Positions 3,268-22,810 of a stretch of DNA of 64,000 nt are shown in pieces. Source of the stretch: Microbacterium trichothecenolyticum (GTDB lineage Bacteria; Actinomycetota; Actinomycetes; Actinomycetales; Microbacteriaceae); the NCBI RefSeq assembly GCF_030818955.1, contig NZ_JAUTBF010000001.1:248001-312000 (forward strand), in the 5' to 3' direction. The notes beneath the pieces are model-generated. The model ran no database searches and was not told where the DNA came from. It worked only from the letters and a program-made list of their open reading frames with translations. A program made the translations under genes and the position numbers. How positions within the stretch are numbered: position 1 is the stretch's first letter; every line of letters starts with the position of its first letter.

Positions 3268-4863
3268 TCAGTGGGTGTCTTCGGCCTCGATCTCGGTGCG
3301 ATCGCCCGACCAGAGGGTGTGGAACGTGCCCTCCTTGTCGATACGGCGGTAGGTGTGCGCCCCGAAGAAGTCGCGCTGGCCCTGGATGAGGGCCGCCGGC
3401 AGACGCTCGGCGCGCAGGCCGTCGTAGTACGCCAGCGACGAGCTGAAGGCGGGGGCGGGGATGCCGCTGGCCGCCGACAGCGACACGATGTGACGCCACG
3501 CGTCCTGGGCGCGCCCGAGCGCCTCGACGAAGTACGGCGCGGTCAACAGCACGGGCAGGGTGGCCTCGGCGTCGTAGGCCTCGGCGATGCGGTTGAGGAA
3601 CTGTGCGCGAATGATGCAGCCGCCGCGCCAGATCTTCGACACCGCGCCGAGGTCGATCGCCCAGTCGTACTGCGCGGCTCCCGCGCGGATCTCATCGAAC
3701 CCCTGCGAGTACGCGACGATCTTCGAGGCGTACAGCGCCAGGCGCACCTGCTCGATGAAGGCGTCGGCGTCCTCGCCCGAGAGCAGGTCGGTGCCGGAGG
3801 GTCCGGGGAGCTCGCGCGAGACCTCGCGCTGCTCGGGGTGGCTCGACAGCGAGCGCGCGAATGTGGCCTCGGCGATGCCCGAGACGGGAACACCCAGATC
3901 GAGCGCGGTCTGCACGGTCCATGCGCCGGTGCCCTTGGCGCCGGCCTGGTCGAGGATGATGTCGACGAGGGGCTTACCGGTCTCGGCGTCGGTCTGACGC
4001 AGCACCTCGGCGGTGATCTCGATGAGGTAGGACTCCAGCTCGCCGCGGTTCCACTCGGCGAACACGTCGGCGATCTCGGCCGGGGTCTTGCCGGTCGCGC
4101 GGCGAATGAGGTCGTACGCCTCGGCGATGAGCTGCATGTCGGCGTACTCGATGCCGTTGTGCACCATCTTCACGAAGTGACCGGCGCCGTCGTGGCCGAC
4201 GTGCGTCACGCACGCCTCGCCCTCGGCGACCGCGGCGATGCCCTTCAGGATGGGTCCGAGCGTGATCCACGACTCGTCGGACCCGCCGGGCATGAGCGAG
4301 GGGCCCAGCAGCGCGCCCTCCTCGCCGCCCGAGACGCCCATGCCCACGTAGTTGATGCCCGTGTCGCGCACGGCCTTCTCGCGGCGGATGGTGTCGGTGA
4401 ACAGGGCGTTGCCGCCGTCGACGATGATGTCGCCCGGCTCGAACACCTTGACGAGCTCGTCGATGACGAAGTCGGTGGGGCGGCCCGCCTTGACCATGAT
4501 GATCGCCGTGCGCGGCACCGAGAGCGACGCCGCGAAGTCCTCGTACGAGAACGACGGCACGAACTCCGCCTCGGGGTGCGCCGCGAGCAGCTCGTCGGTC
4601 TTGGACCGCGACCGGTTGAACACCGCGACCGTGTTGCCCTCGCGGCTGGCGAGGTTGCGGGCCAGGTTGGAGCCCATGACGGCCAGGCCGACGACACCGA
4701 TGTTGGCGCGGGCCTCGCCCTGGCCCTCGGGGGCCGAGTCGGCCTCGGCGGTGGGGCGATCGACCTCTTCGATCCCGGGTGCACCCTCGTGCACCTGCGC
4801 GGCCTGGTGGGGCGCCTGGTCCTGGTCGGTCGAAGGTCCGGTCGGGGAGGGGGTGGACGTCAT
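3268..4863 (-). CDS. gnd: 6-phosphogluconate dehydrogenase, decarboxylating
   Basis: Converts 6-phosphogluconate to ribulose 5-phosphate and CO2 with NADP+ in the oxidative pentose phosphate pathway. The protein is 531 residues, longer than the usual 470-485. The Rossmann motif GLAVMGSNLARNL begins near residue 59; the substrate and catalytic region VSGGEEGALLGPS and HFVKMVHNGIEY are intact, as is the C-terminal region ending SGDRTEIEAEDTH. The extra 50 N-terminal residues are rich in Pro, Glu and Asp and look disordered. ATG 4863 is chosen for GGAG eight bases upstream; an internal GTG could give a shorter form. It lies downstream of gntP and gntK with a 102-base gap holding its own likely promoter. 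Confidence 0.95.
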   Translation of the reverse strand: MTSTPSPTGPSTDQDQAPHQAAQVHEGAPGIEEVDRPTAEADSAPEGQGEARANIGVVGLAVMGSNLARNLASREGNTVAVFNRSRSKTDELLAAHPEAEFVPSFSYEDFAASLSVPRTAIIMVKAGRPTDFVIDELVKVFEPGDIIVDGGNALFTDTIRREKAVRDTGINYVGMGVSGGEEGALLGPSLMPGGSDESWITLGPILKGIAAVAEGEACVTHVGHDGAGHFVKMVHNGIEYADMQLIAEAYDLIRRATGKTPAEIADVFAEWNRGELESYLIEITAEVLRQTDAETGKPLVDIILDQAGAKGTGAWTVQTALDLGVPVSGIAEATFARSLSSHPEQREVSRELPGPSGTDLLSGEDADAFIEQVRLALYASKIVAYSQGFDEIRAGAAQYDWAIDLGAVSKIWRGGCIIRAQFLNRIAEAYDAEATLPVLLTAPYFVEALGRAQDAWRHIVSLSAASGIPAPAFSSSLAYYDGLRAERLPAALIQGQRDFFGAHTYRRIDKEGTFHTLWSGDRTEIEAEDTH

Positions 4864-4903
4864 TCGTTGCTCCGTAATCGGGTACGAGGAAGGGGTGGGC
4901 GTG

Positions 4904-4949
4904 CACGCGCGGGCCGCCTCCGCCACTGTATCGGCTCGGCCCGCGCGTG
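4904..4949 (-). promoter_or_regulatory. 13-bp inverted repeat enclosing a -10 element, upstream of gnd
   Basis: CACGCGCGGGCCG (4904-4916) and CGGCCCGCGCGTG (4937-4949) are perfect arms. The 20-base loop holds TACAGT (minus strand, 4925-4930), a good -10 hexamer about 60 bases before the gnd start. It could be an operator around the gnd promoter, a hairpin ending gntPK transcription, or both. Confidence 0.5.
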
Positions 4950-4965: not shown

Positions 4966-5481
4966 TCAGGACGCTCGAGCGAGGTGCAGCAAGGCGATGA
5001 CCTCGTCGACCTGCTCCTGCGGCGGGAGGTCGAGGTCGATGCGGATCGCCTGCTCATCGGCATCCGGCATCTCGAGGGTCTCGAACTGCGACGTCAGCAG
5101 CGCGGGCGGCATGAAGTGCCCCTGGCGGCGCATGAGGCGCTGCAGCACCAGCGCCGGGTCTCCCATGAGCAGGACGAACGACACCGGGTCACGGCGGAGC
5201 ACGTCGCGATAGCTGCGCTTGAGCGCGGAGCACGTGATCACTCCCGGACGCCCGATGGCGATCTGCCCGTCGATCCACGCGGCGACGCGGTCGAGCCACG
5301 GCCAACGGTCGTCGTCGTTGAGCGCGTGACCGGCCGCCATCTTGGCGACGTTCTCGGCGGGGTGCAGGTCATCGCCCTCTTGGAAGTCCCAGCCGAGGCG
5401 CCCGGCGAGCATGCCTGCGACGGTGGATTTGCCGGTGCCGGCGGGGCCCATGAACACGAGGACGGGGGCGGTGGATGCCAT
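4966..5481 (-). CDS. gntK: Gluconokinase
   Basis: Phosphorylates D-gluconate to 6-phosphogluconate using ATP in the cytoplasm. The 171-residue length is typical of the small P-loop (GntK/IdnK) family. The Walker A motif is GPAGTGKST near residues 12-20, followed by the conserved QEGDDLHP and DDDRWPWL segments, CSALKRSYRD and the lid region RQGHFMPPALLTSQ. The gene lies 19 bases after gntP on the same strand and before gnd, giving an uptake-kinase-dehydrogenase order. The divergent GntR regulator at 7038 probably controls it through the gntP promoter. Confidence 0.95.
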   Translation of the reverse strand: MASTAPVLVFMGPAGTGKSTVAGMLAGRLGWDFQEGDDLHPAENVAKMAAGHALNDDDRWPWLDRVAAWIDGQIAIGRPGVITCSALKRSYRDVLRRDPVSFVLLMGDPALVLQRLMRRQGHFMPPALLTSQFETLEMPDADEQAIRIDLDLPPQEQVDEVIALLHLARAS

Positions 5482-5500: not shown

Positions 5501-6904
5501 TCAGACGAACGCGCTGATGACGAGGACGCCGGCCAGACCCGTGACCGAGATCACGCACTCGAGCACGGTCCATGTTTTCAGGGTCATCGGGATGTCGAGA
5601 CCGAAGTATTCCTTGATGAGCCAGAAGCCGGCGTCGTTGACGTGGCTGAGGAACACCGAGCCGGCGCCGATCGCGAGCACGAGCAGCGCGGTCATGGGAG
5701 CGTCGAGGGTTTCGGTGAGCGGCTGCAGGATGCCGGCCGCGGTGATCGTCGCGACGGTCGCCGATCCCGTCGCGACGCGGATGACGACGGCGACGAGCCA
5801 CGCGAGGAACAGTACCGAGAAGCTGGAGCCGGCGACGAGATCGGCGATGACCTTGCCGATGCCGGTGTCGACGAGCACCTGCTTGAAGCCTCCGCCGGCG
5901 CCCACGATGAGCAGGATGCCGGCGATCGGGCCGAGCGAGGAGCCGACGACACCCGTCAGCCGCGCACGGTCGAAGCCGGCGCCGCGGCCGAGCACGACGA
6001 AGCCGACGAGCACCGCGAGCAGCAGGGCGATGATCGGCAGGCCGAGGAAGTCGACGACGACCTTCCAGATGTCGTTCGAGCCGGGCGCGACGATGTCGGC
6101 GACGGCCTTGAGCAGCATGAGGAAGACCGGCAGGAGGATGCTGCCGAGCGTCGCGGCGAACGAGGGGCGGCGCGCGGGCTCCTCACCCTTCTCTTCCGCC
6201 GAGACGAAGAGGTCGGGCACGGGGACCGGTGCCCAGCGGGCGGCGATGGGCGCGAACAGCGGGCCGGCGATGATGACGGCGGGGATCGCGACGAGCACGC
6301 CGAAGGCGAGGGTCAGTCCGAGGTTGGCATCCAGAGCGGCGATGGCGGCGAGCGGCCCCGGGTGCGGGGGCACGAGACCGTGCATCGCGGAGAGGCCGGC
6401 GAGGGTGGGGATGGCGATCTTCATCAGCGAGACGCCCGAGCGGCGGGCGACGAGGATGATGACCGGCACGAGCAGTACGAGACCGACCTCGAAGAACATC
6501 GGCAGGCCGATGATCGCGCCGATCAGACCCATGACCCAGGGGAGCGAGCGCGGGGTCGCCCGGGCGACGAGGGTGTCGACGATGCGGTCGGCGCCGCCGG
6601 AGTCGGCGAGGAGCTTGCCGTAGATCGCACCGAGGGCGATCAGGATGCCGACCCCGCCCATCGTCGAGCCGAAGCCGCCGGTGAAGCTGGTCACCGCGGT
6701 GGCGATGGGCATGCCGGCGATGACGCCCGTGGTGAATCCGCCGATGGTCAAGGCGAGGAAGGGGTGGAGCTTGCCCCACGTGATCAGCACCACGATGAGG
6801 GCGATGCCGATGAGGGCGGCGGTGATCAACTGCCCGGCGGGGGCGGTGGATACGGGCTCCGCAGCGGCGAACACCGTCGTAGCGGGGAGGGGGGAGAGGG
6901 CCAT
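5501..6904 (-). CDS. gntP: Gluconate:H+ symporter, GntP family
   Basis: An inner-membrane permease of 467 residues with 12 or more hydrophobic segments, expected to import gluconate with protons. Family landmarks are TWGKLHPFLALTIGGFTTG near the N terminus, GLPMFFEVGLVLLVPV, the GLVPPHPGPLAAI loop and SHVNDAGFWLIKEYFG near the C terminus. ATG 6904 is chosen because AAGGA lies upstream at good spacing; the reading frame extends 27 codons further without support. It heads the gntP-gntK unit and faces gntR across about 130 bases containing a TGTCGTACA motif. Confidence 0.95.
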   Translation of the reverse strand: MALSPLPATTVFAAAEPVSTAPAGQLITAALIGIALIVVLITWGKLHPFLALTIGGFTTGVIAGMPIATAVTSFTGGFGSTMGGVGILIALGAIYGKLLADSGGADRIVDTLVARATPRSLPWVMGLIGAIIGLPMFFEVGLVLLVPVIILVARRSGVSLMKIAIPTLAGLSAMHGLVPPHPGPLAAIAALDANLGLTLAFGVLVAIPAVIIAGPLFAPIAARWAPVPVPDLFVSAEEKGEEPARRPSFAATLGSILLPVFLMLLKAVADIVAPGSNDIWKVVVDFLGLPIIALLLAVLVGFVVLGRGAGFDRARLTGVVGSSLGPIAGILLIVGAGGGFKQVLVDTGIGKVIADLVAGSSFSVLFLAWLVAVVIRVATGSATVATITAAGILQPLTETLDAPMTALLVLAIGAGSVFLSHVNDAGFWLIKEYFGLDIPMTLKTWTVLECVISVTGLAGVLVISAFV

Positions 6905-6948
6905 GAGCGTCCTTGTTCCGGCGAGCGGCAGCGATGCCGTGAGGTATT

Positions 6949-6957
6949 TGTCGTACA
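6949..6957. promoter_or_regulatory. Candidate GntR/FadR-type operator TGTCGTACA
   Basis: TGT-N3-ACA lies between the divergent gntP and gntR genes, inside the AT-rich stretch TATTTGTCGTACATAAA. FadR-subfamily sites commonly have a GT-N(2-3)-AC core, so this is a likely site for the adjacent regulator. Assignment is by position and pattern only. Confidence 0.5.
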
Positions 6958-7037
6958 TAAAACCACAGGATGCGCGAACCTGCACGACGAATTTCGGAAA
7001 CGGGCCGCGTGGTGTCTGTCATCATCGAGGAATGACG

Positions 7038-7742
7038 ATGGACCGTCCGACCGTGGCGTCGCTGCACGACGCTCTCGTCGACCGTCTCGGATCCGCCATC
7101 GTCGACGGGCAGCTCGCCGCCGGGTCGCGCCTCGTGACGGCGGAGCTGTCGCCCGGATCCTCGCGGGGTGCGGGGCGGGAGGCGGTGCGGGTGCTGCAGT
7201 CCCTCGGCCTCGTGCGCGTGCGCCGGAAGACCGGCGTCGAGGTGCTCCCGGTGACGCAGTGGAACGTCTACGCGCCCGAGATCATCGCCTGGCGCCTGGC
7301 CGGGCCGGGCCGCACGGCGCAACTGCGCGAGCTCAGCGAGCTGCGCGGGGCGATCGAGCCGCTCGCGGCCCGATCGGCGGCCGTGCACGCCACCGACGCA
7401 CAGCGTCAGGAGCTGGTGGCCGCGGTGATGGAGATGGCGCGTACCGAACGCGATGCCGACGGCGCCGAGTACCTCGCGGCCGACGTCCGGTTCCACCGCA
7501 CCCTGCTCGCGGCATCCGGCAACACCATGTTCGGAGCCCTCGGCTCCGTCGTGGAGTCGGTGCTCGTGGGCAGGACGCTGCACGAGCTCATGCCGCACGA
7601 CGCCAACCCGCATGCGGTGCGCTGGCACCAGGACGTCGCCTTCGCCGTCGCCGCCGGCCGGGCTGAGGAGGCGGCGCAGGCGATGAGCCTCATCGTGCGT
7701 GAGGCCGGCCAGGCCATGGCCTCGGCGATCTCGGCGCAGTGA
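7038..7742 (+). CDS. GntR-family regulator, FadR subfamily (FCD domain)
   Basis: A 234-residue transcription factor expected to repress the divergent gluconate genes and release on binding a sugar acid. The N-terminal winged helix spans about residues 10-75 (LVDRLGSAIVDGQLAAGSRL then GREAVRVLQSLGLVRVRRKTG). The C-terminal FCD domain has the all-helical ELRGAIEPLAARSAAVHA start, the DVRFHRTLLAASGN motif and HDANPHAVRWHQDV, whose Asp and His residues normally bind a metal and ligand. ATG 7038 is preferred over ATG 7032 because GAGGA ends only one base before 7032 but six bases before 7038. It is convergent with the next gene, three bases apart. Confidence 0.9.
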   Translation: MDRPTVASLHDALVDRLGSAIVDGQLAAGSRLVTAELSPGSSRGAGREAVRVLQSLGLVRVRRKTGVEVLPVTQWNVYAPEIIAWRLAGPGRTAQLRELSELRGAIEPLAARSAAVHATDAQRQELVAAVMEMARTERDADGAEYLAADVRFHRTLLAASGNTMFGALGSVVESVLVGRTLHELMPHDANPHAVRWHQDVAFAVAAGRAEEAAQAMSLIVREAGQAMASAISAQ

Positions 7743-7745
7743 CGG

Positions 7746-8657
7746 TCAGGCGGAGTCTCGCGTCGCGCTGCGCTGCGCGGTGAAGCGGCGGGTGACGGCG
7801 ATGTCGCGACCGCCGAGCCCGCGCTCGACGATCTCGTCGAAGGCTTTCCGCAGCGCCGGCAGCAGCGCGGGACGGGTGTCGGTGGCCGCGGCGATGTCGG
7901 CGGCGAAGCGCAGGTCTTTGACCATGTACTCCGCGACGCCGCTGGGGGAGTCGTCACCCGAGACGAGTTTCTCGCGCCGGCTCTCGAGCAGACGCGACCC
8001 GGCGTAGCCGCCGCCGAGCAGCTCCCACAGGGCGGCGGGGTCGACGCCCGAGCGCGCGGCGAGCTCGGTCGCCTCGCCGAGCGCGAGGATCGTCGAGGCG
8101 ACGACGAGCTGATTGCAGGCCTTGGCGACCTCGCCGGCGCCGAGCGGTCCGAGACGCACGGGTGTTCCGCACGGGGCGAGCAGGCGGGCTGCGAGGTCGG
8201 TGTCGGCGGGGGAGCCGCCGAGCATGATCGACAGGCTCCCGGCCTTCGCGCCGTCCTCGCCGCCCGAGACCGGGCAGTCCACGACGCGGATGTTCTCGGG
8301 GAGGCGGTCGGCCAGCTCGCGCACACCGACGGGCGACGAGGTCGAGCCGATCATCAGCAGGAAGGGGCGCTCGGCGATCCCGGCGAGCAGGCCGTCGGGC
8401 CCGTCGAGGTGCTCCTCGAGCTGCGGCAGGTCGGGCAGCATCGCCAGCACCGCATCGGCTTGTGCGCCGAGTTCGCGCGCCGTCGCCGCCCAGCGAGCGC
8501 CGGCCTCGATGAGGGCGGGGCGTTCGCGTCGGGCGTGGACCACGAGGTCATCGCGGTCGGCGAGCAGGTGCTGAGCCATCGGTTCGCCCATGGCGCCCAA
8601 GCCCCAGACGCCGAGACGGACGGTCGAGGCGGTGGTCTCGTCATCGAGAGGAGTCAT
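7746..8657 (-). CDS. NAD(P)-dependent beta-hydroxyacid dehydrogenase (HIBADH / tartronate semialdehyde reductase family)
   Basis: A 303-residue member of the 3-hydroxyisobutyrate and 2-hydroxy-3-oxopropionate dehydrogenase family. Visible motifs: Rossmann GVWGLGAMGEPMAQHL, substrate motif DCPVSGGEDGAKAGSLSIML, catalytic Lys in GAGEVAKACNQLVVA, and the C-terminal DSPSGVAEYMVKDLRFA. Exact substrate is not fixed by sequence; tartronate semialdehyde or a related sugar-acid fragment would suit the locus. TACGCT (8665-8670) lies seven bases before ATG, so the message is probably leaderless. A GTTCA/TGAAC palindrome covers its likely -35 region, suggesting shared IclR control with the divergent dehydrogenase gene. 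Confidence 0.85.
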   Translation of the reverse strand: MTPLDDETTASTVRLGVWGLGAMGEPMAQHLLADRDDLVVHARRERPALIEAGARWAATARELGAQADAVLAMLPDLPQLEEHLDGPDGLLAGIAERPFLLMIGSTSSPVGVRELADRLPENIRVVDCPVSGGEDGAKAGSLSIMLGGSPADTDLAARLLAPCGTPVRLGPLGAGEVAKACNQLVVASTILALGEATELAARSGVDPAALWELLGGGYAGSRLLESRREKLVSGDDSPSGVAEYMVKDLRFAADIAAATDTRPALLPALRKAFDEIVERGLGGRDIAVTRRFTAQRSATRDSA

Positions 8658-8687
8658 GAGTCTCAGCGTACCGGCTGGACAACAGGT

Positions 8688-8711
8688 TGAACAGGGTTCA
8701 CTATTGTGAAC
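8688..8711. promoter_or_regulatory. Overlapping palindromes, candidate IclR operator
   Basis: TGAAC-AGG-GTTCA (8688-8700) overlaps GTTCAC-TATT-GTGAAC (8696-8711), giving three half-sites in alternating orientation. They lie between the divergent genes at 8657 and 8771. The same half-sites recur over the transporter promoter at 10.8 kb. The adjacent iclR-type gene is the obvious candidate binder. Confidence 0.65.
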
Positions 8712-8770
8712 ACACGCACGCTGATCGAGCGCGTCCGATGCGCCCGCTCGCGACGAAGGGATGGACGAAG

Positions 8771-9826
8771 ATGTCGACGCACAAGAGCCTACGCGCGGTG
8801 GTCGCGGTTCCCCTCCGCGAGGAGCACTGTCTTCTGATCGAGCGTCTCGAGCCGCGCCTCGAGCTCGTGCGCGACGTCTCTCTCACCCGCCCCATGCGCG
8901 GGCCGGCCGACTGGTCGGGGGATCCGGACCACGAACGTTCCGCGGCGCAGCAGCGGGCCTTCGACGAGATGGTCGACTCCGCCGACGCGCTGTTCGGCAT
9001 CCCGGACGTCGATCCCGCGGCGCTCGCCCGCACGGTCGCGGCGAACCCCGGGCTGCGCTGGGTCATGACCACCGCGGCCGGCGGCGGCGGACAGGTCAAG
9101 GCCGCGGGCCTGGATGACGCGGCCCTCGAGCGCATCGTCTTCACCACGAGCGCCGGCGTGCACGGCGGACCGCTCGCGGAGTTCGCGGTCTTCGGCGTCC
9201 TCGCCGGGGCCAAGGGCCTGCCGCGGCTGCGACAGGACCAGGACGCGGGAGTGTGGCCGGAGCGCTGGGAGATGCGGCAGATCGACGAGATGACCGTCCT
9301 CGTCGTGGGGCTCGGGGGTATCGGCGCGGAATGCGCGCGCCGGTTCCACGCGCTCGGCGCGGAGGTCTGGGGCACGACACGTTCGGGTGCGCCCGTCGAC
9401 GGGGTCGACCGACTGATCCCTCTCGACGAGCTGGTGTCGGCGGTGGCGGACGTGGATGCCATCGTCGTCACGCTCCCGGGCACGGAACAGACGCACCATC
9501 TGATCGGGGCCGACATCTTCGCCGCGGTGAAGCCGGGCGTGATCGTCGCGAACGTCGGACGCGGCACCGTGATCGACGAGGAAGCGCTGCTCGCCGCGCT
9601 CGACGACGGGCGGGTCGGCTTCGCCGCTCTCGACGTCTTCGAGGTCGAGCCGCTGCCGAGTGCGTCGCCGCTGTGGAGGCATCCGCACGTGCTCGTGAGC
9701 CCGCACACCGCGGCGCTCAGCAGCAAAGAGGAGGAGCGGATCGCGCGGCGTTTCGCCGAGAATGCCACGCGCCTGCTCGATGGCGAACCGTTGCGCGCGG
9801 TTGTCGATACGGTCGAGTTCTACTGA
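8771..9826 (+). CDS. D-isomer-specific 2-hydroxyacid dehydrogenase
   Basis: A 351-residue NAD(P)-dependent dehydrogenase of the D-2-hydroxyacid family, probably a keto-gluconate or glyoxylate/hydroxypyruvate reductase. The cofactor motif is VVGLGGIGAECARRFHALG. The catalytic Arg is in VANVGRGTVIDEEAL, the Glu in DVFEVEPLP and the His in VSPHTAAL, so the triad is complete. The N-terminal catalytic-domain half has a less common insertion with GDPDHERSAAQQRAFDEMV. ATG 8771 is chosen for AAGGGA at about nine bases; upstream frame is weakly supported. It precedes the IclR gene by 25 bases and is probably co-transcribed with it. Confidence 0.88.
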   Translation: MSTHKSLRAVVAVPLREEHCLLIERLEPRLELVRDVSLTRPMRGPADWSGDPDHERSAAQQRAFDEMVDSADALFGIPDVDPAALARTVAANPGLRWVMTTAAGGGGQVKAAGLDDAALERIVFTTSAGVHGGPLAEFAVFGVLAGAKGLPRLRQDQDAGVWPERWEMRQIDEMTVLVVGLGGIGAECARRFHALGAEVWGTTRSGAPVDGVDRLIPLDELVSAVADVDAIVVTLPGTEQTHHLIGADIFAAVKPGVIVANVGRGTVIDEEALLAALDDGRVGFAALDVFEVEPLPSASPLWRHPHVLVSPHTAALSSKEEERIARRFAENATRLLDGEPLRAVVDTVEFY

Positions 9827-9851
9827 TCGCATCCACCGAGGGAGGGTCCGC

Positions 9852-10646
9852 ATGGCCGAGGACGACGACGGTCGGCAGACGCGCGACCCCGCTCCCGCGG
9901 TCGGGCGCAGTATCCGTCTGCTCGGACTGCTGGCCGAGGCGGAGCGCAGTCTGACGCTGACGGAGCTGGCATCCGGTCTCGGGCTGGCGAAGTCGTCGAC
10001 GGCGAACCTCTGCCTGTCGCTGGAGGCGGAGCGGATGATCGAGCGCGTGCCATCGGGATATCGCCTCGGGATCCGCACCGCGGAGCTGGGTGGGGCGTTC
10101 GCGGCGCAGTTCAATCAGGTGCGGGAGTTCTACGCCGTCTGCGAGGCGTCGCGCGTGCTCGCGCGCGAGCTCGTGCAGGTCGCCGTGCTCGACGACGCCG
10201 ATTCGCTCTACCTCGCCCGGTACGAGGGCTCGCGCTCGGTGCGGCTGGGAACGCCGCTGGGCTCGCGGCTGCCGGCCGCCCTGTCGGCGACCGGGCGCGC
10301 TCTGCTGATGACGCGGGATGACGACGCCGTGCGTGAGCTGCTTCACCGTGGCGGTCCGCTGCCGGAGCTCACCTCGCACAGCACGGTCGACGTCGACGGC
10401 ATCCTCGCCAAACTCGCCGCCGCCCGCGAGCGGGGTTGGGCCGTCGACGAGGAGGAGTCGTTCCGCGGCATCGTCGGGGTCGCCGTGCCCCTCGAGGGGT
10501 GGGCGCCGGGGGATCCGCAGCTCGCCCTGGGTGTCGGCATCCCGGTCGCGGATGCCACGCCCGAACGCATCTCCCGCGTCGGCGCCGCGCTGCGCGAGGC
10601 CGCCGCCGCGCTGACCAACCCGTTCAGCGCCGCCCCCCGCGCCTGA
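9852..10646 (+). CDS. IclR-family transcriptional regulator
   Basis: A 264-residue regulator with an N-terminal winged helix (AVGRSIRLLGLLAEAERSLTLTELASGLGLAKSSTANLCLSL, residues 16-57) and a C-terminal ligand-binding domain (VCEASRVLARELVQVAVLDD, LGSRLPAALSATGRALL, SFRGIVGVAVPL). IclR proteins control sugar-acid and aromatic catabolism and bind short palindromes. GGAGGG six bases before ATG 9852 supports the start. It is placed between the hydroxyacid dehydrogenase and the transporter operon, both preceded by GTTCA/TGAAC repeats, so it is the likely controller of both. The effector is unknown. Confidence 0.92.
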   Translation: MAEDDDGRQTRDPAPAVGRSIRLLGLLAEAERSLTLTELASGLGLAKSSTANLCLSLEAERMIERVPSGYRLGIRTAELGGAFAAQFNQVREFYAVCEASRVLARELVQVAVLDDADSLYLARYEGSRSVRLGTPLGSRLPAALSATGRALLMTRDDDAVRELLHRGGPLPELTSHSTVDVDGILAKLAAARERGWAVDEEESFRGIVGVAVPLEGWAPGDPQLALGVGIPVADATPERISRVGAALREAAAALTNPFSAAPRA

Positions 10647-10688
10647 GCCGCGTTCGTCGCGTCGGCCCGCGTCGGCGGGTGACACGTC

Positions 10689-10757
10689 GTTTGGGGCGCC
10701 CCCTTCCGTTTGGGGCGCGGTTTTGCGCGCCCCAAACGCAAGGGCGCGCCCCAAAAC
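10689..10757. repeat. Palindromic repeat family B, copy 1 (GTTTGGGGCGC)
   Basis: Two tandem GTTTGGGGCGC modules (10689 and 10708) are followed, after a short TTTT loop, by two inverted modules ending at 10757. The arms are about 33 bases and nearly complementary. A second copy lies at 44141-44207. It sits between the iclR gene and the transporter promoter, so it may also end transcription of iclR. Confidence 0.8.
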
Positions 10758-10797
10758 GCCCCGGGAGCGGCTGTCGCGCGGACCGAAGAAAGAATCC

Positions 10798-10836
10798 GTT
10801 CAGCATATTGAACACCGTCCACTCCGTTGGTACAGT
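10798..10836 (+). promoter_or_regulatory. Promoter of the transporter operon overlapped by a candidate IclR site
   Basis: GTTCA-GCATAT-TGAAC (10798-10813) is a palindrome whose right half is part of TTGAAC, a good -35 hexamer (10808-10813). Seventeen bases later is TACAGT (10831-10836), a good -10. A protein bound at the palindrome would block this promoter. The start codon is about 42 bases downstream. Confidence 0.7.
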
Positions 10837-10877
10837 CGGCTTTGTCGGGAGACCCCAGCCGATCAAAGGAGATGGCC

Positions 10878-12287
10878 GTGACCACTGCACCCACCGCGAC
10901 GCCCGCGCCGCAGGACGACCCCGAGTACGCCGCCAATCTGCGGAGGGCGACACTCGCCTCCAGCATCGGCAGCGCCCTGGAGTACTTCGACTTCGCCCTG
11001 TACGGGCTGTCGACGGCGCTGATCTTCAACGTCCTGTTCTTCCCGCAGGAAGACCCGGCCCTCGCCACCGTGGCCGCCTTCGCGACCTACGGCGTGGGCT
11101 TCCTCGCCCGTCCGTTCGGCGGGCTGTTCTTCGGCGTGCTGGGCGACAAGCTCGGCCGCAAGTGGGTGCTCGTCATCACGATCCTGCTGATGGGTGGTGC
11201 GTCCACCGCGATCGGCCTGCTGCCCACCTACTCCGCGATCGGCGTCGCGGCCCCGATCCTCCTCGTCATCATGCGGCTGCTGCAGGGCTTCGGGGCCGGA
11301 GCCGAGCAGGCCGGGGCAACGGTCCTCATGGCCGAGTACGCCCCCGTCAAGCGGCGCGGCTTCTTCGCGGCCCTGCCGTTCATCGGCATCCAGGCCGGCA
11401 CGCTGCTGGCCGCGGTCGTGTTCAGCCTCATCTCGCTCCTGCCCGAGGACCAGCTGCTGAGCTGGGGCTGGCGGGTGCCGTTCCTGGCGTCGTTCCTGCT
11501 GATCCTCATCGCCCTGTTCATCCGCATGCGCCTGCGCGAGACGCCGACCTTCATCGAGCTCGAGAAGCACGAGCAGATCGCCGAGCGTCCCATCCGCGAC
11601 ATCTTCACGCGCGGCCTCCCGGGCATCATCGTCGGCGTCGGCCTGCGCATGGCCGAGAACGGCGGGTCGTACATGTTCAACACCCTCGCCCTGACGTTCT
11701 TCGTCGCCTCCGTCGGGGGACAGGCCGACCGGAGCCTGCTGACGTGGGGCGTGACGCTCGGATCGCTCATCGGCATCTTCTCGGTCCCGCTGACCGGAGC
11801 GCTCTCCGACCGCATGGGCCGACGCACCGTCTACCGGTTCGGAGCGCTGTTCATGCTCGTCTTCACGTTCCCCGCCTGGTGGCTGATCTCGCTGGGCAGC
11901 TACCCGATCACCATCGCGGTCATCGCGATCGGCATCGGCGTCGCGGTCAACTCGATGCTCGGACCCCAGTGCGCCATGCTCCCCGAGCTCTTCGGCAACC
12001 GCCACCGCTACCTCGGTGTCGCCATGGCGCGCGAGATCTCGGCGGTCCTGGCCGGCGGGCTCGCCGGTGTGCTGGGCGCGTACATCATCGCCGTTTCGGG
12101 GGCCAACTGGCTCCTGCTGGCGATCTACATGGCCACGCTCGCCCTCATCACCACCGCCTCCACCTTCCTCGTGCCCGAGACGCTCCGCCGTGACCTCACC
12201 CGCATCGACGACGCCATCAAGGTGTCGCGCGAGGAGGCCGGCGAGGGTGTGGATGCCACCACCGTGACCGTTCGGACGATCCGGTGA
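10878..12287 (+). CDS. MFS transporter, metabolite:H+ symporter (MHS) type
   Basis: A 12-helix permease of about 469 residues, probably importing the acid that the following three enzymes process. MHS features are the N-terminal ASSIGSALEYFDFALYG, the long loop after FFPQEDP, the GDKLGRKWVLVITILLMG cytoplasmic motif, LLQGFGAGAEQAGATVLMAEYAP and SDRMGRRTVYRFG in the second half. GTG 10878 is preferred to ATG 10872 because AAAGGAG ends directly before 10872 but six bases before 10878. The gene overlaps the SDR gene by GTGA, so it is the first gene of a transporter-SDR-FAH-ADH operon. Substrate is not determined by sequence. Confidence 0.88.
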   Translation: MTTAPTATPAPQDDPEYAANLRRATLASSIGSALEYFDFALYGLSTALIFNVLFFPQEDPALATVAAFATYGVGFLARPFGGLFFGVLGDKLGRKWVLVITILLMGGASTAIGLLPTYSAIGVAAPILLVIMRLLQGFGAGAEQAGATVLMAEYAPVKRRGFFAALPFIGIQAGTLLAAVVFSLISLLPEDQLLSWGWRVPFLASFLLILIALFIRMRLRETPTFIELEKHEQIAERPIRDIFTRGLPGIIVGVGLRMAENGGSYMFNTLALTFFVASVGGQADRSLLTWGVTLGSLIGIFSVPLTGALSDRMGRRTVYRFGALFMLVFTFPAWWLISLGSYPITIAVIAIGIGVAVNSMLGPQCAMLPELFGNRHRYLGVAMAREISAVLAGGLAGVLGAYIIAVSGANWLLLAIYMATLALITTASTFLVPETLRRDLTRIDDAIKVSREEAGEGVDATTVTVRTIR

Positions 12288-13048
12288 GCGCGTTCGATCT
12301 CACCGGCCGGCTCGCCCTGGTGACCGGCTCGAGCCGCGGCATCGGCCGGACCCTCGCGCAGGGCCTCGCCGAGGCCGGTGCGACGGTCATCGTGCATGGT
12401 CGGGATGCCGCGACGGCCGGCCGCGCGGCCGAGGAGATCTCGGCCTCCACCGGGGTGGACGCGCACGTCGCGACCTTCGATGTGGGTGGTTCCGCCGCTG
12501 TCGATGCGGGCCTCGATGCGATCGAGGAGCGCCACGGCGTACCCGACATCGTCGTCAACAACGCCGGCATCCAGCGTCGCGCCCCGCTCGCGGAGTTCCC
12601 GGATGCCGACTGGGACGACCTCGTGCGGACGAACCTCTCCAGCGCGTTCTACGTGTCGCGGCGGGTCTCTCGCGGGATGATCGCGCGCGGCTCGGGCAAG
12701 CTCATCCAGATCGGCAGCGTCCAGTCGCTGCTGGCCCGCCCCTCGATCGCGGCGTACGGCGCGACGAAGGGCGCCATCGCGATGCTGACGAAGGGCCTGT
12801 GCGCCGACCTCGCGCCGCACGGCATCCAGGCCAACGCCATCGCGCCGGGGTACTTCGCCACCGAGCTGACGCAGGCCCTCGTCGACGACGAGCAGTTCTC
12901 CGCGTGGGTGCGTTCGCGCACACCGGCGGGGCGGTGGGGGGACACCAGCGACCTGGTGGGGGCGCTGGTGTTCCTCTCGAGCGCGGCGAGCGATTTCGTC
13001 AACGGCCAGACGATCTACGTCGACGGCGGAATGACGGCGGTGGTGTGA
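12284..13048 (+). CDS. SDR-family oxidoreductase, gluconate 5-dehydrogenase-like
   Basis: A 254-residue classical short-chain dehydrogenase. The cofactor motif is TGSSRGIG, the structural NNAG follows at about residue 92, and the catalytic Ser (IGSVQSLL), Tyr and Lys (AAYGATKGA) are present. The opening FDLTGRLALVTGSSRGIGRTLA and the segment NNAGIQRR are typical of gluconate 5-dehydrogenase and 2-deoxygluconate dehydrogenase relatives, which reduce or oxidise keto-gluconates. The same fold also oxidises 2-keto-3-deoxy sugar acids, which would fit the neighbouring FAH hydrolase. GTG start overlaps the transporter stop by four bases and its stop overlaps the next ATG, so translation is coupled. 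Confidence 0.88.
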   Translation: MSAFDLTGRLALVTGSSRGIGRTLAQGLAEAGATVIVHGRDAATAGRAAEEISASTGVDAHVATFDVGGSAAVDAGLDAIEERHGVPDIVVNNAGIQRRAPLAEFPDADWDDLVRTNLSSAFYVSRRVSRGMIARGSGKLIQIGSVQSLLARPSIAAYGATKGAIAMLTKGLCADLAPHGIQANAIAPGYFATELTQALVDDEQFSAWVRSRTPAGRWGDTSDLVGALVFLSSAASDFVNGQTIYVDGGMTAVV

Positions 13049-13785
13049 TGCGTATCGCTCGCCTGGCGACGGCCGACGGCACCCGCACCGTTCGTGCCTG
13101 CGCCGACGGGACCTGGATCCCGATCGACGACCCCTTCGCCGCCTTCGCCGCCGGACAGCCGGTGACGGATGCCGGTGAGCCGGTGCAGGGGACCCTGGTC
13201 GCGCCGTGCGTGCCCACGGTCATCGTCGGCATCGCCCAGAACGGTCCCGATCACGCCGCGCCCGTGCAGGCGTGGCTGAAGAGCCCGCGCACCGTGACCG
13301 GCCCGGACGCGACGGTGACGCTTCGGCGGGATGCCGGAACGACCGTCGCCGAGGCGGAGGTCGCCGTGGTCATCGGCCGCGACACGACCGGGCTGACCGC
13401 CGAGACGGCCCACGAGTACGTGCTCGGGATCACCGCGGTCAACGATCTCTCGAGCCCCGACCGCTCGGTGGTGGACCCGCGCAACTTCGAGTCGAAGTCG
13501 GGGGAGGGGTACACCCCGCTCGGGCCGTGGATCGACACCGCGATCGGACTCGACGACGACGTGGCGCTGCGCCTGCTCGTCGACGGCGACCCCGTCGCCG
13601 AGACCTCGGCGGGCCGCTACCCCATGTCGCCCCGCGCGTGCCTGGCGTACGTGGCCGGCTGGACGACCCTGGGCCCCGGGGACGTCATCATGATGGGCGC
13701 CCCGTTCTCGGCCGCCCCGATCCGACCCGGTGTCGTGGTCGAGGTCGTCGTCGACGAGATGCGCCTGCGCACGGAGGTGATCTGA
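13048..13785 (+). CDS. Fumarylacetoacetate hydrolase (FAH) family protein
   Basis: A 245-residue FAH-fold enzyme. Members cleave or hydrate 2-oxo and 2,4-dioxo acids using a divalent metal. Visible family segments are VAEAEVAVVIG (metal Glu residues), LGITAVNDLSSPD and SKSGEGYTPLGPWIDT, followed by the C-terminal CLAYVAGWTTLGPGDVIMMGAP. The first ATG base is the last base of the SDR stop codon. Idonate catabolism has no step for such an enzyme, so its presence between an SDR and an ADH points to a dioxo-sugar-acid cleavage or side-product removal. That role is inference. Confidence 0.85.
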   Translation: MRIARLATADGTRTVRACADGTWIPIDDPFAAFAAGQPVTDAGEPVQGTLVAPCVPTVIVGIAQNGPDHAAPVQAWLKSPRTVTGPDATVTLRRDAGTTVAEAEVAVVIGRDTTGLTAETAHEYVLGITAVNDLSSPDRSVVDPRNFESKSGEGYTPLGPWIDTAIGLDDDVALRLLVDGDPVAETSAGRYPMSPRACLAYVAGWTTLGPGDVIMMGAPFSAAPIRPGVVVEVVVDEMRLRTEVI

Positions 13786-13788
13786 CCC

Positions 13789-14826
13789 ATGACCAATTCC
13801 GCCGTGGTGGCCCACGCCGCCGGTGACCTGCGGATCGACGACATCGGCGAGCCGACCCCGGATGCCGACGAGGCCGTCGTCGCGGTCGCGTTCGGGGGCG
13901 TCTGCGGCTCCGACCTGCACTACTGGCGTCACGGTGCCGCGGGGGCCTCCATCCTGCGTGAGCCCCTGGTGCTCGGGCACGAGCTGTCCGGCATCGTCGT
14001 CCGCGCCGCCGCCGACGGCTCGGGGCCCGCCGCAGGCACGCCCGTCGCGGTGCATCCCCTGACCCCGCACGGCGACGGCGTGACGCCCTGGCCCGCGGAT
14101 CGCCCGAACCTCGCTCCCGCGTCGACCTATCTCGGGTCGGCGATGCACCTGCCGCACACACAGGGCGGTTTCGCCGAGCGCGTCGCGCTACCCAGCCGCA
14201 TGCTGTTCCCGCTTCCGGCGGGCCTCGATCTGCGCACGGCGGTGCTCGCCGAGCCCGCGGCGGTCGCATGGCACGCCGTGGAGCGCGCGGGGTCGGTCGC
14301 CGGGCGGCGCGTCGCGGTGATCGGCTCGGGCCCGATCGGGCTGCTCGCCGTGGCCGTCGCCCGCCATCACGGCGCGGCGGAGGTCATCGCCACCGATCTG
14401 CACGAACTGCCGCGTTCGTTGGCCTCCGCGCGCGGCGCCCGTGTGCTCGACGCGCGGGACGAGGAGGCCATCGCGGGGCTGCACGCCGACGTGGTGATCG
14501 AGTCCAGCGGCACGGTTCCGGGCCTGGGCGCCGCGGTGTCGGCGGCGGCTCGCGGCGGCACGGTCGTGATGCTCGGCCTGCAGGCGGCGGGTACGGTCGC
14601 AGCACCGTTGGCGACGGCGATCACGCGCGAGCTCACCCTGACGGGATCCTTCCGCTTCGCCGCGGAGTTCGCCGCGGTGCTCGCGGCGCTCGCCGACGGA
14701 TCGCTCGAGGTCGACGGCATCCTCACGCACGTCGTCTCCGCAGTCCAAGCGGCGGAGGCGTTCGCCACGGCGGCGGACGCATCGGTGTCGTCGAAGGTCG
14801 CGCTCGCGTTCGGCGCGGGGGACTGA
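13789..14826 (+). CDS. Zinc-type alcohol dehydrogenase, L-idonate 5-dehydrogenase-like
   Basis: A 345-residue medium-chain dehydrogenase expected to oxidise a sugar acid or polyol with NAD(P)+. Catalytic zinc ligands are present: Cys39 (GGVCGSDLHYW), His64-Glu65 (VLGHELSG) and Glu155 (LAEPAAVAWHA). The cofactor site is VAVIGSGPIGLLAVAVA near residue 175. The lobe that normally carries four cysteines for the structural zinc (about residues 88-112) has none; Cys39 is the only cysteine I see in the protein. It is last in the operon, three bases after the FAH gene. L-idonate dehydrogenase is the nearest family, but sorbitol-type substrates are possible. Confidence 0.85.
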   Translation: MTNSAVVAHAAGDLRIDDIGEPTPDADEAVVAVAFGGVCGSDLHYWRHGAAGASILREPLVLGHELSGIVVRAAADGSGPAAGTPVAVHPLTPHGDGVTPWPADRPNLAPASTYLGSAMHLPHTQGGFAERVALPSRMLFPLPAGLDLRTAVLAEPAAVAWHAVERAGSVAGRRVAVIGSGPIGLLAVAVARHHGAAEVIATDLHELPRSLASARGARVLDARDEEAIAGLHADVVIESSGTVPGLGAAVSAAARGGTVVMLGLQAAGTVAAPLATAITRELTLTGSFRFAAEFAAVLAALADGSLEVDGILTHVVSAVQAAEAFATAADASVSSKVALAFGAGD

Positions 14827-20775: not shown

Positions 20776-20867
20776 ACGGGCCGGTCGAGGCGGAGGTCCC
20801 GCCGCGGCGGGCGGGGCCGGTGGGTGTGGTGGGTCCGGTGGGTTCGGGGTGCCCGGCCGATGATGGT

Positions 20868-20947
20868 CCGTCCCGCGGAGTTCGGACTCGACGCGCGCTC
20901 CTGCGGCGACTCCGGGCGGCGTGTCGCGGGCGAACTCCGCGGGATGG
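20868..20947. repeat. Palindromic repeat family A, copy 1
   Basis: Left arm CCGTCCCGCGGAGTTCG with CGACGCGC pairs with GGCGTGTCG and CGAACTCCGCGGGATGG. Arms are about 29 bases around a 20-base loop. It lies between mfd and the first TRIC gene. Other copies are at 22.5-22.95 kb and 39.5 kb. Confidence 0.75.
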
Positions 20948-21003
20948 AGCACCGACACTGCGCGCGTGCACGGAGCATCGCCGGCCGCTGCCAGAATGAC
21001 CGT

Positions 21004-21660
21004 ATGACCGACGTCGTCCCCGAGCAGCGGGCCCCGTCTCGCCCCTCCCTGGGCGCGCGTGCGTTCGACGCCCTCGACATCGCGGCCACGGCCCTGTTCG
21101 GCCTCGAAGGGGCGGCGATCGCGGCCCATGCGGGGCTCGACCTTCTCGGTGTCGTCGTAGTCGGCTTCATCGTCGCCCTCGCCGGTGGTGTGCTGCGCGA
21201 CGTACTGCTCGGCGACCTGCCGCCCGCCGCGCTGCGCTCACCCAGCCGCATCGTGGCCGCGCTCGGTGCGGCGGTCGTGGCGTTCGTGTGCATCGAGGTC
21301 GTCGACGCGTTCCCGGTGCTTCCCCTCCAGGTCATGGATGCCATCGGCCTCGCCCTCTTCGCCGTCACGGGCGCGCAGAAGGCTTGGAGCACGGGCGCCA
21401 ACCTGTGGGTGGTGACGATCCTCGGCACCGTCGCCGCCACCGGTGGTGGTGTGATCCGCGATGTCCTGCTGCAGCGCACCCCCTTCGTGCTCTCGCAAAG
21501 CGTGTACGGCAGTGCCGCGGCCGCGGGCGCCGTGGTCACCGGCATCCTTCTCGCCACGACCCGCCGGCCACGTCTGGCGCTCGCCGCCGGCTTCGTCGTG
21601 GCGCTCGCCCTGCGCCTGGGCGCCGTGCTGTGGGGCTGGTCTCTTCCGAGGATCACGTGA
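21004..21660 (+). CDS. TRIC / UPF0126 family cation channel, first copy
   Basis: A 218-residue membrane protein of the trimeric intracellular cation channel family, expected to pass K+ in homotrimers. It has two internal repeats of three helices, each with the family core: GLDLLGVVVVGFIVALAGGV with LRDVLLGDLPP, and ANLWVVTILGTVAATGGGV with IRDVLLQRTP. The conserved glycine-rich ALAGG and ATGGG kinks are intact. CAGAAT six bases before ATG 21004 suggests a leaderless start. It overlaps the second copy by GTGA. Confidence 0.9.
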   Translation: MTDVVPEQRAPSRPSLGARAFDALDIAATALFGLEGAAIAAHAGLDLLGVVVVGFIVALAGGVLRDVLLGDLPPAALRSPSRIVAALGAAVVAFVCIEVVDAFPVLPLQVMDAIGLALFAVTGAQKAWSTGANLWVVTILGTVAATGGGVIRDVLLQRTPFVLSQSVYGSAAAAGAVVTGILLATTRRPRLALAAGFVVALALRLGAVLWGWSLPRIT

Positions 21661-22331
21661 GCGCTCTGCTCGTGGGGCGCGTCGTGACCGCGACCCGTCC
21701 CGTGCCGGGACGTCCGTCTCTCGGCGCCCGTGCATTCGCCGCGCTCGACATCACGGCCACCGCCGTGCGCGGCCTCGAAGGGGCGGCCTTGGCTGCCCAC
21801 GCCGGGTTCGATCTGCTCGGCGTGATCGTGGTCGGCTTCGTCGCCGCCGTCGCGGGGGGCATGTTGCGCGACGTGCTCCTGGGCGATCTGCCGCCGGCGG
21901 CGCTGCGTTCCGCGAGTCGCATCGTCGTGGCCCTGATGGCGGCGGTCGCGACGTTCGTGTTGCTGAACCTCGTGGATGCCGTACCCGAACCCCTCCTGCT
22001 GAGCCTCGACGGCATGGGGTTGGCGCTGTTCGCCGTGATCGGCGCCCAGAAGGCGTACGCGCACGGCGCGAGCCTGTGGGTCGTGGTGATCATCGGCGTC
22101 GTCGCGGCCACGGGAGGCGGCGTGCTGCGCGACGTCCTGCTCGGGCACACGCCGGTATTGCTGACGCAGAGCGTGTACGGCCTGGCCGCTGCGGCTGGGG
22201 CCCTGGTCACCGGCATCCTCCTGCTGACGACCCGTCGCCCCCACCTCGCCGTCGTGGTCGGCTTCGTCATCGCCTTCGGGCTGCGCGAGGCGGCAATCCT
22301 CTGGGGCTGGTCGCTGCCGCGTATCGGCTGA
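21657..22331 (+). CDS. TRIC / UPF0126 family cation channel, second copy
   Basis: A 224-residue paralogue of the preceding gene, starting at GTG inside the previous stop (GTGA overlap). It shares the start PSLGARAFAALDI, the cores FDLLGVIVVGFVAAVAGG and ASLWVVVIIGVVAATGGGV, and the identical end WGWSLPRI, so the pair is a tandem duplication. The differing N-terminal tail (SALLVGRVVTATRPVPG) and different central residues suggest some divergence. Translation coupling suggests equal amounts of both; hetero-oligomers are possible but unproven. Confidence 0.88.
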   Translation: MSALLVGRVVTATRPVPGRPSLGARAFAALDITATAVRGLEGAALAAHAGFDLLGVIVVGFVAAVAGGMLRDVLLGDLPPAALRSASRIVVALMAAVATFVLLNLVDAVPEPLLLSLDGMGLALFAVIGAQKAYAHGASLWVVVIIGVVAATGGGVLRDVLLGHTPVLLTQSVYGLAAAAGALVTGILLLTTRRPHLAVVVGFVIAFGLREAAILWGWSLPRIG

Positions 22332-22394
22332 CGGGGGTGTCGGCCTCACGCCGACGGCACCGACGGGAAGGCAGACGTTTCTCCCACCTCGGCC

Positions 22395-22538
22395 GTCGTG
22401 TTGTCGGGCTGTTGGGCTGTTGGGCTGTCGTGCCGTCGGCCAGTCGGCCAGTCGGCCAGTCGGCCAGTCGGACCGTCGGCCAGTCGGACCGTCGGCCAGT
22501 CGGACCGTCGGCCCGTCGGGTTGTCGTGCCGTCGGGCG
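22395..22538. repeat. Octamer tandem array (GTCGGNNN x 18)
   Basis: Eighteen consecutive 8-base units with no break in phase, nearly all GTCGGNNN; GTCGGCCA occurs six times and GTCGGACC three times, alternating in the centre. The last unit runs into the left arm of the next family A palindrome. This is VNTR-like, and no coding frame through it looks real. Confidence 0.85.
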
Positions 22539-22734: not shown

Positions 22735-22810
22735 GAGATAGCCGGTGAGCGGGCGCCCCGGGAGCGGCGGGCGGCGTGGCGGCGGGCACCGGGCGGAGGT
22801 GCAGGACGGG

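What the first reader, a model, noticed from the sequence alone, without database searches (positions are those of the whole stretch)
7746..14826. Sugar-acid cluster with an FAH-fold hydrolase that the idonate/gluconate route does not explain
The gene set (transporter, gluconate-5-dehydrogenase-like SDR, FAH hydrolase, idonate-dehydrogenase-like ADH, D-2-hydroxyacid dehydrogenase, beta-hydroxyacid dehydrogenase) is tightly overlapped. Known oxidative pathways for 6-deoxy sugars use an SDR to form a 2,4-dioxo acid that an FAH enzyme cleaves. Here no dehydratase or lactonase is present. This could be a new route for an uncommon aldonic or keto acid, feeding GntK and Gnd next door.
Basis: inference. 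Interest (0 to 1): 0.72.

Follow-up and report, generated by a model that had tools for sequence, protein, structure and literature searches.

The report
Keto-acid operon with altered FAH enzyme
A Microbacterium-type bacterium carries a co-regulated set of genes that probably imports and uses an oxidised sugar acid, and one enzyme in it comes from a family known for splitting molecules but lacks a residue used for that, so its real job is open and testable.

Summary
The genes are real; transporter-SDR-FAH-IdnD is one overlapping operon. (1) Of 80 related loci, 72 hold the transporter but 57 an SDR and 55 an IdnD; 29 have FAH directly behind the transporter. (2) In 119 Microbacterium genomes FAH (33) co-occurs with the transporter in 32 and the beta-hydroxyacid dehydrogenase (HIBD) in 31, with this IdnD in 16. 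(3) A predicted operator, GTTCA-N6-TGAAC, precedes the transporter (67 of 68 loci, at least 8 of 10 bases), D2HDH (50 of 66), and 5 of 8 FAH genes whose loci lack the transporter. FAH thus fits an IclR regulon {HIBD, D2HDH, IclR, transporter, FAH}. (4) This FAH subfamily keeps metal ligands and lysines but lacks the Glu of the water-activating His-Glu dyad of acylpyruvate and 2,4-dioxo-acid hydrolases; two of three other FAH proteins of the genome have it. Best reading: a 2-keto-aldonate uptake and reduction regulon feeding idonate/gluconate metabolism, FAH being a metal-dependent tautomerase/isomerase or decarboxylase. Substrate and reaction are unproven.

The parts
7746..8657 (-). HIBD: beta-hydroxyacid dehydrogenase (GarR / 3-hydroxyisobutyrate dehydrogenase type)
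   Evidence: PF03446 and PF14833; best NCBIfam 2-hydroxy-3-oxopropionate reductase, 168 bits, under the 397 cut-off; in 32 of 119 Microbacterium genomes, 31 of them with FAH
8696..8711 (.). Predicted operator GTTCACTATTGTGAAC between HIBD and D2HDH
   Evidence: exact match; conserved before D2HDH in 50 of 66 loci at 8 or more of 10 bases
8771..9826 (+). D2HDH: D-2-hydroxyacid dehydrogenase, candidate 2-keto-aldonate reductase
   Evidence: PF02826; NCBIfam NF041369 191 bits, under the cut-off 400. Start read; the queries began at 8774, without the first Met
9852..10646 (+). IclR-family regulator, candidate binder of the operator
   Evidence: PF01614 and PF09339 (query began at 9810)
10798..10813 (.). 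Predicted operator GTTCAGCATATTGAAC upstream of the transporter
   Evidence: exact match; conserved before the transporter in 67 of 68 loci at 8 or more of 10 bases
10872..12287 (+). MHS-type MFS transporter (metabolite:H+ symporter)
   Evidence: TIGR00883 370 bits, under the cut-off 443; co-occurs with FAH in 32 of 33 FAH genomes
12284..13048 (+). SDR, gluconate 5-dehydrogenase-like
   Evidence: best NCBIfam PRK07523 350 bits and PRK08085 311 bits, both under cut-off; PDB 5u9p gluconate 5-dehydrogenase E=4.5e-88
13048..13785 (+). FAH-fold protein, 245 aa, without the Glu of the hydrolase dyad
13789..14826 (+). L-idonate 5-dehydrogenase-like zinc ADH
   Evidence: NF007375 L-idonate 5-dehydrogenase 222 bits, best hit but under the cut-off 469; PDB 6dkh E=4.9e-47 beside sorbitol dehydrogenase 1.9e-47
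7032..7742 (+). GntR/FCD regulator of the adjoining gluconate genes (role inferred from position)
   Evidence: PF07729 (query began at 7023)
5501..6985 (-). GntP gluconate:H+ symporter
   Evidence: TIGR00791 440.7 bits, over the cut-off 292.75
4966..5481 (-). GntK gluconokinase
   Evidence: TIGR01313 185.6 bits, over the cut-off 113.75; no Pfam match at 1e-5
3268..4926 (-). Gnd, NADP 6-phosphogluconate dehydrogenase
   Evidence: NF006765 702.9 bits, over the cut-off 413

Best explanation
This is an IclR-controlled regulon for uptake and reduction of an oxidised aldonic acid (a 2-keto-aldonate such as 2-keto-D-gluconate, 2-keto-L-gulonate or 2,5-diketo-D-gluconate). The MHS transporter imports it. 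D2HDH reduces the 2-oxo group. The FAH-fold protein is a divalent-metal enzyme that binds the 1-carboxylate/2-oxo pair and moves protons on C3 (keto-enol tautomerase, 2-keto/3-keto isomerase or C3 epimerase, or a decarboxylase) but does not hydrolyse a C-C bond. HIBD handles the 3-oxo or semialdehyde by-form. IdnD and the SDR are a replaceable tail (L-idonate to 5-ketogluconate to D-gluconate) leading to GntK and Gnd. Shown here: gene content, operon, shared predicted operator, co-occurrence, absence of the hydrolase Glu. Inferred: substrate, reactions of FAH, HIBD and D2HDH, and that IclR is the binder.
For: Operator GTTCA-N6-TGAAC before the transporter (67 of 68 loci) and D2HDH (50 of 66) at 8 or more of 10 bases, against 8 of 340 and 13 of 330 single-base shuffles; SDR (4 of 56), IdnD (2 of 55), Gnd (0 of 33), GntK (1 of 25) and L25 (0 of 49) are at or near chance. 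Of the 8 FAH loci among L001-L080 with no transporter, 5, all Arthrobacter (L070, L072, L073, L078, L079), have the site within 200 bases before FAH at 9 or 10 of 10; in shuffles of 160 bases 1 of 395 reached 9. In L070's and L072's genomes the transporter, IclR and a D2HDH sit on another contig with an exact site before IclR. FAH co-occurs with the transporter in 32 and HIBD in 31 of 33 genomes. D2HDH without FAH sits beside GntK and Gnd (L082, L085), Gnd (L081, L084, L086) or in SDR-IdnD sets (L087-L089). E102, E104, D133, K78 and K150 are invariant in 36 aligned sequences, H69 is not, and the dyad Glu is Pro72 or lies in a deletion. Literature: the His-Glu dyad activates water for hydrolysis (PMC6336799, PMC7115867, passages); D-2-hydroxyacid dehydrogenases include 2-ketoaldonate reductases, one from Brevibacterium ketosoreductum (PMC6827314, passages).
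Against: No substrate was tested. D2HDH does not reach the GhrB model's cut-off (95 of 492 bits); that model covers the E. coli 2-ketoaldonate reductase (recalled). HIBD was not found in L059/L060 nor in the fetched stretches of L070's and L072's genomes, so it is not universal. L098 holds FAH with SDR and IdnD but no transporter at the locus, its FAH scoring 7 of 10 for the operator; L054, L055, L068 and L104 have FAH with neither transporter nor operator (7, 7, 7, 6 of 10). In L078's genome the four operator places I read of eight showed no core gene. G250 holds transporter, HIBD and D2HDH without a FAH hit. L087 has D2HDH-IclR-SDR-IdnD and a 9-of-10 operator without FAH, so the IclR ligand may be an idonate-side compound. 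One other FAH protein of the same genome also lacks the dyad, so its absence is not unique to this subfamily, and loss of a Glu does not prove loss of hydrolase activity.
Confidence: 0.42

Rival explanations
1. One reading: the SDR oxidises a 2-keto-3-deoxy acid at C4 and FAH hydrolyses the 2,4-dioxo acid to pyruvate plus a hydroxy acid (Route III type).
Against: No dehydratase recognised beside it. SDR not seen in 23 of 80 FAH loci. Hydrolase dyad Glu missing while PMC6336799 names His83/Glu86 for these hydrolases (passages). NF053535 hydrolase model 57.6 bits against a cut-off of 500. The SDR resembles gluconate 5-dehydrogenase.
Confidence: 0.1
2. The transporter/D2HDH/FAH/HIBD regulon serves a non-sugar 2-oxo or 2-hydroxy acid (for example a dicarboxylate), and the idonate genes are only neighbours.
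For: The MHS family also carries dicarboxylates, shikimate and betaine (recalled; TIGR00883 and shikimate and ProP models hit). L059-L061, L063 and L037 show no SDR or IdnD within about 18.7 kb. The core in L070's and L072's genomes shows no idonate genes in the fetched stretches.
Against: In Microbacterium D2HDH sits with GntK/Gnd or with SDR-IdnD even without FAH; GntK follows IdnD in 24 of 39 loci; SDR and IdnD flank FAH behind the transporter in 36 loci.
Confidence: 0.22
3. FAH is a metabolite-repair enzyme (oxaloacetate-type tautomerase or decarboxylase) induced with the pathway but dispensable for growth.
For: Nearest structural relatives include proteins named isomerase and Cg1458; keto-enol isomerase ability is proposed for FAHD1 (PMC7115867, PMC8398924, passages).
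Against: Almost strict co-occurrence with one transporter and HIBD in Microbacterium, and an operator of its own in Arthrobacter loci away from the transporter, point to a pathway-specific substrate. Cg1458 itself keeps NYADHVAE.
Confidence: 0.14
4. FAH is a dehydratase of a 2-keto-3-deoxy acid, as in 2-keto-3-deoxy-D-arabinonate dehydratase.
Against: No aldonate dehydratase or 2,5-dioxopentanoate dehydrogenase recognised beside it; 18% identity; no dehydratase model at E 1e-5.
Confidence: 0.06

Closest known systems
L-idonate/ketogluconate catabolism (IdnD, IdnO, GntK, 2-ketoaldonate reductase)
   Same: IdnD-like ADH, gluconate-5-dehydrogenase-like SDR, GntK, Gnd and a D-2-hydroxyacid dehydrogenase are present
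   Different: Adds an MHS transporter, FAH-fold protein and beta-hydroxyacid dehydrogenase under one predicted operator; SDR and IdnD are optional; several proteins fall under the NCBIfam equivalog cut-offs
Route III non-phosphorylative pathways (L-fucose, L-rhamnose, pentoses; PMC6336799, passages)
   Same: An SDR next to an FAH-fold protein
   Different: No dehydratase recognised, no hydrolase His-Glu dyad, SDR not strictly conserved with FAH
HpaG/HpcE decarboxylase-isomerase and mycobacterial isomerase-annotated proteins (1gtt, 4pfz, 3qdf)
   Different: 28-30% identity; 4pfz itself keeps NYxxHxxE; no aromatic-degradation genes recognised around; 80 bits against a 229 cut-off for HpaG-N
Cg1458 oxaloacetate decarboxylase and human FAHD1
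   Same: Metal-binding E-x-E, Asp and active-site Lys
   Different: Both keep His and Glu in the lid (PMC7115867 passages); here the lid is shortened and Glu is replaced by Pro or deleted

Membership tests
FAH superfamily (PF01557) | Match to the FAA_hydrolase domain over its cut-off | tested here: met
FAH superfamily (PF01557) | Metal ligands E-x-E and Asp, active-site Lys | tested here: met
   E102, E104, D133, K78, K150 invariant in 36 sequences; assignment to FAHD1 residues by alignment and recall
2,4-diketo-3-deoxy-acid hydrolase (Route III) | Water-activating His-Glu dyad (NYxxHxxE) | tested here: not met
   Motif reads NGPDHxxP; H69 not invariant, Glu absent. Control: motif found in 2 of 3 other FAH proteins of the genome
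2,4-diketo-3-deoxy-acid hydrolase (Route III) | Curated model NF053535 | tested here: not met
   57.6 bits against cut-off 500
2,4-diketo-3-deoxy-acid hydrolase (Route III) | Partner SDR with FAH, dehydratase in the cluster | tested here: not met
   SDR in 57 of 80 FAH loci; no dehydratase among the 11 genes Gnd to IdnD
L-idonate pathway | IdnD, 5-ketogluconate reductase, gluconokinase | tested here: inconclusive
   IdnD best hit but 222 of 469 bits, SDR 311 of 408 bits, both under equivalog cut-offs; GntK subfamily cut-off met
2-ketoaldonate reductase (GhrB/YiaE) | GhrB equivalog model NF011938 | tested here: not met
   95.3 bits against 492; the superfamily PF02826 itself is met
2-ketoaldonate reductase (GhrB/YiaE) | Reduction of 2-keto-gluconate/-gulonate | not testable with these tools
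   needs an enzyme assay
HpaG isomerase/decarboxylase | Curated model TIGR02305 | tested here: not met
   80.3 bits against 228.65
2-keto-3-deoxy acid dehydratase (FAH-type) | Fold match plus specific Glu residues | tested here: inconclusive
IclR regulon | Common operator before member operons | tested here: met
   exceptions L054, L055, L068, L098, L104
IclR regulon | IclR protein binds that operator | not testable with these tools
   needs a gel-shift or footprint

The most novel reading that the evidence does not exclude
The FAH-fold protein is a 2-keto/3-keto (enediol) aldonate isomerase, a reaction not assigned to this superfamily as far as I recall. Together with HIBD (C3-keto reductase) and D2HDH (C2-keto reductase) it would let actinobacteria use enediol or 3-keto sugar acids, such as those released from ascorbate breakdown, through L-idonate into the pentose phosphate pathway.
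Probability: 0.12. Interest if true: 0.75.

Novelty: new variant of a known kind. Interest (0 to 1): 0.47.

Why it matters
It gives a defined regulon with a predicted operator, a transporter and a candidate enzyme reaction to test, in place of a loose 'FAH in a sugar-acid cluster'. It also cautions against a tempting annotation: sources name this protein a 2-keto-4-pentenoate hydratase or a fumarylacetoacetate hydrolase family protein, yet it lacks the Glu of the hydrolytic dyad. If it is an isomerase or tautomerase of keto-aldonates it adds a reaction to the FAH superfamily and a feeder into gluconate metabolism.

Tried and rejected
The SDR + FAH hydrolase route was tested by synteny, co-occurrence and active-site motif and set aside. 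A literature link between FAH proteins and idonate, ketogluconate, diketogluconate or ascorbate routes was sought. Searches found no paper. One search found two: I read passages of PMC11066805 (plant ascorbate review, FAH named once) and nothing of PMC3918161. Of I saw listings (one search listed 10 of 42) and read passages of PMC6827314 and PMC6303947. No paper on this gene set turned up in these searches. The mechanism papers PMC8398924, PMC7115867 and PMC6336799 were seen as passages.

Regulon members elsewhere in the own genome: 9 exact operator places, 2 here, 6 inside called ORFs, 1 between two ORFs without Pfam match; nothing added to the pathway. In three Arthrobacter genomes 25 exact places were listed (5, 12, 8). 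Two of the five in the first are within L070; I read 12 further regions: 2 lie before IclR, 9 inside called ORFs, 1 between ORFs without a core gene; 7 places in the second genome and 4 in the third were not read. A CGTTTNGGGGCGC repeat upstream of the transporter looked regulatory but belongs to a dispersed element.

Spread: one search scanned bacterial and archaeal genomes; its 80 kept loci (of 110) are all actinobacterial by title, the other 30 were not seen. Whether Microbacterium ketosireducens (in NCBI taxonomy now M. terrae; its identity with Brevibacterium ketosoreductum is recalled, and one search found no such name) holds this D2HDH could not be tested.

Limits of the counts: the 80 loci are the best 80 of 110 and are related species, not independent; some are cut by contig ends. 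In one search some loci are the same place twice (L064/L096, L065/L094, L036/L095), so its 69 of 77 sites is partly redundant, and one site between HIBD and D2HDH counts for both. One search used L001-L080 and only genes with at least 85% query coverage and 150 bases upstream, hence 68 and 66 loci; its shuffles keep base composition only; starts are alignment starts. G171 (transporter without FAH) ends inside the SDR on a 4.1-kb contig, so absence of FAH there is not shown; in G250 another gene follows the transporter, a possible true exception. G184 (FAH without transporter hit) is the place of L065, where transporter and FAH are partial.
Full report
WHAT IS THERE. The window lies in a 3.74 Mb genome (G000:C1:248001-312000) whose closest named relatives are Microbacterium. 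Transporter, SDR, FAH and IdnD overlap or nearly touch (12284/12287, 13048/13048, 13785/13789). HIBD is divergent from D2HDH. GntR, GntP, GntK and Gnd adjoin on the other side.

THE FAH'S REAL PARTNERS. I fetched 80 loci encoding relatives of the FAH (best 80 of 110) and searched them with the window's proteins. Found in the locus, of 80: transporter 72, IclR 67, D2HDH 66, HIBD 63, SDR 57, IdnD 55, GntK 45, Gnd 38. Of 71 loci with transporter and FAH on the same strand, 36 have the window's order transporter-SDR-FAH-IdnD, 29 have FAH directly behind the transporter (3 of these with IdnD next), and 6 have other spacing (5 Arthrobacter or Pseudarthrobacter loci with D2HDH-FAH-IclR-transporter, and L013). 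In the M. testaceum group (L001 and others) a different SDR and IdnD (about 59% and 45% identical) sit behind a GntP, with a divergent GntR, next door. So SDR and IdnD are a separable, replaceable module.

CO-OCCURRENCE. In the same 119 Microbacterium genomes, FAH is found in 33, transporter in 34, HIBD in 32, D2HDH in 43. Joint with FAH: transporter 32, HIBD 31, D2HDH 31; IdnD at 70% identity or more in 16. D2HDH occurs in 12 genomes without a FAH hit. Two of these are G171 (sequence ends before FAH could be seen) and G250 (possible true exception). I read the other ten (11 loci, L081-L091). D2HDH stands next to Gnd (L081, L084, L086), to GntK and Gnd (L082, L085), at a contig end (L083), in D2HDH-IclR-SDR-IdnD (L087) or in aminotransferase-D2HDH-SDR-IdnD sets (L088, L089), with neither FAH nor HIBD called; L090 and L091 (55% and 54% identical) lie among other genes with ABC-type transporters. 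This makes a 2-keto-aldonate/gluconate role for D2HDH likely and suggests that reductase plus idonate enzymes can run without FAH. At family level FAH is patchy: 12 of 150 Microbacteriaceae genomes at E 1e-30. With a profile, 10 of 248 genomes of the order and 9 of 296 of the phylum at E 1e-45.

THE OPERATOR. Two exact copies of GTTCA-N6-TGAAC lie at 8696-8711 and 10798-10813 (with one mismatch allowed, 3 matches in the window against 0.54 expected; 2 of 100 shuffles reached 3). Across L001-L080, the best site in the 160 bases upstream reaches 8 or more of the 10 fixed bases in 67 of 68 transporter genes and 50 of 66 D2HDH genes, against 8 of 340 and 13 of 330 shuffled segments. For other genes: IclR 5 of 67 (all 10 of 10), FAH 7 of 79, SDR 4 of 56, IdnD 2 of 55, Gnd 0 of 33, GntK 1 of 25, L25 0 of 49. 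Eight of the 80 loci have no transporter. Five of these, all Arthrobacter (L070, L072, L073, L078, L079), carry the site within 200 bases before FAH itself at 9 or 10 of 10; L054, L055 and L068 reach only 7, as does L098, and L104 reaches 6. In the genomes of L070 and L072 the transporter, IclR and D2HDH are on another contig, with an exact site 132 and 185 bases before IclR, and no SDR, IdnD or HIBD hit in those stretches. In L078's genome the four places read of eight showed no core gene. Thus in these Arthrobacter genomes FAH lies apart and has its own copy of the site. Of the eleven D2HDH loci without FAH, ten, with no IclR recognised by sequence beside D2HDH, score 5 to 7 of 10; L087, which has an IclR, scores 9. 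That the IclR protein is the binder is inferred. Promoter elements were not analysed.

HOW IT MOST LIKELY WORKS. Import by the MHS protein; proton shuffling on the 2-oxo acid by FAH; reduction by D2HDH and HIBD; then IdnD, SDR, GntK, Gnd. Passages of PMC6827314 state that 2-ketoaldonate reductases of the D-2-hydroxyacid dehydrogenase superfamily, reported among others from Brevibacterium ketosoreductum, reduce 2,5-diketogluconate, 2-ketogluconate and 2-keto-L-gulonate; that this organism is a Microbacterium is recalled. The D2HDH here does not reach the GhrB model (95 of 492 bits), which weakens the link. Passages of PMC11066805 describe the unsolved tautomerisation of open-chain ascorbate to 2-keto-L-gulonate and an Arabidopsis FAH mutant with altered ascorbate; they inspire, but do not support, the novel case.

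VERDICT. Observation confirmed. Interpretation partly supported. A new variant of keto-aldonate/idonate catabolism with one enzyme of unassigned reaction, and a predicted operator that makes the regulon testable.

Noticed in passing
L088 6943-17705 and L089 1-12661 (unnamed Microbacterium genomes G204, G262): Relatives of D2HDH, SDR and IdnD (with GntK and Gnd in L089) form one array with an aminotransferase, an RraA-like aldolase, a second SDR and LamB/YcsF plus carboxyltransferase-domain (5-oxoprolinase-type, recalled) genes and another MHS-like transporter (35% identical): possibly an amino-sugar-acid or lactam route into gluconate (Pfam for six L089 proteins; coordinates).
   Followed up: partly
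10689-10737 and 44141-44188: Dispersed hairpin repeat (GTTTGGGGCGC...GCGCCCCAAAC), at 5 places in the 3.7 Mb genome, one of them between IclR and the transporter.
   Followed up: partly
20860-22331: Two adjacent paralogous Gly_transporter (PF03458) membrane proteins.
   Followed up: no
22391-22537 and 22810-22867: GC-rich tandem repeats of a 16-base unit (about 8 and 3.6 copies).
   Followed up: no
L065 / L094 (Microbacterium lacticum): The transporter, FAH and SDR match only in part, as if decaying together.
   Followed up: partly
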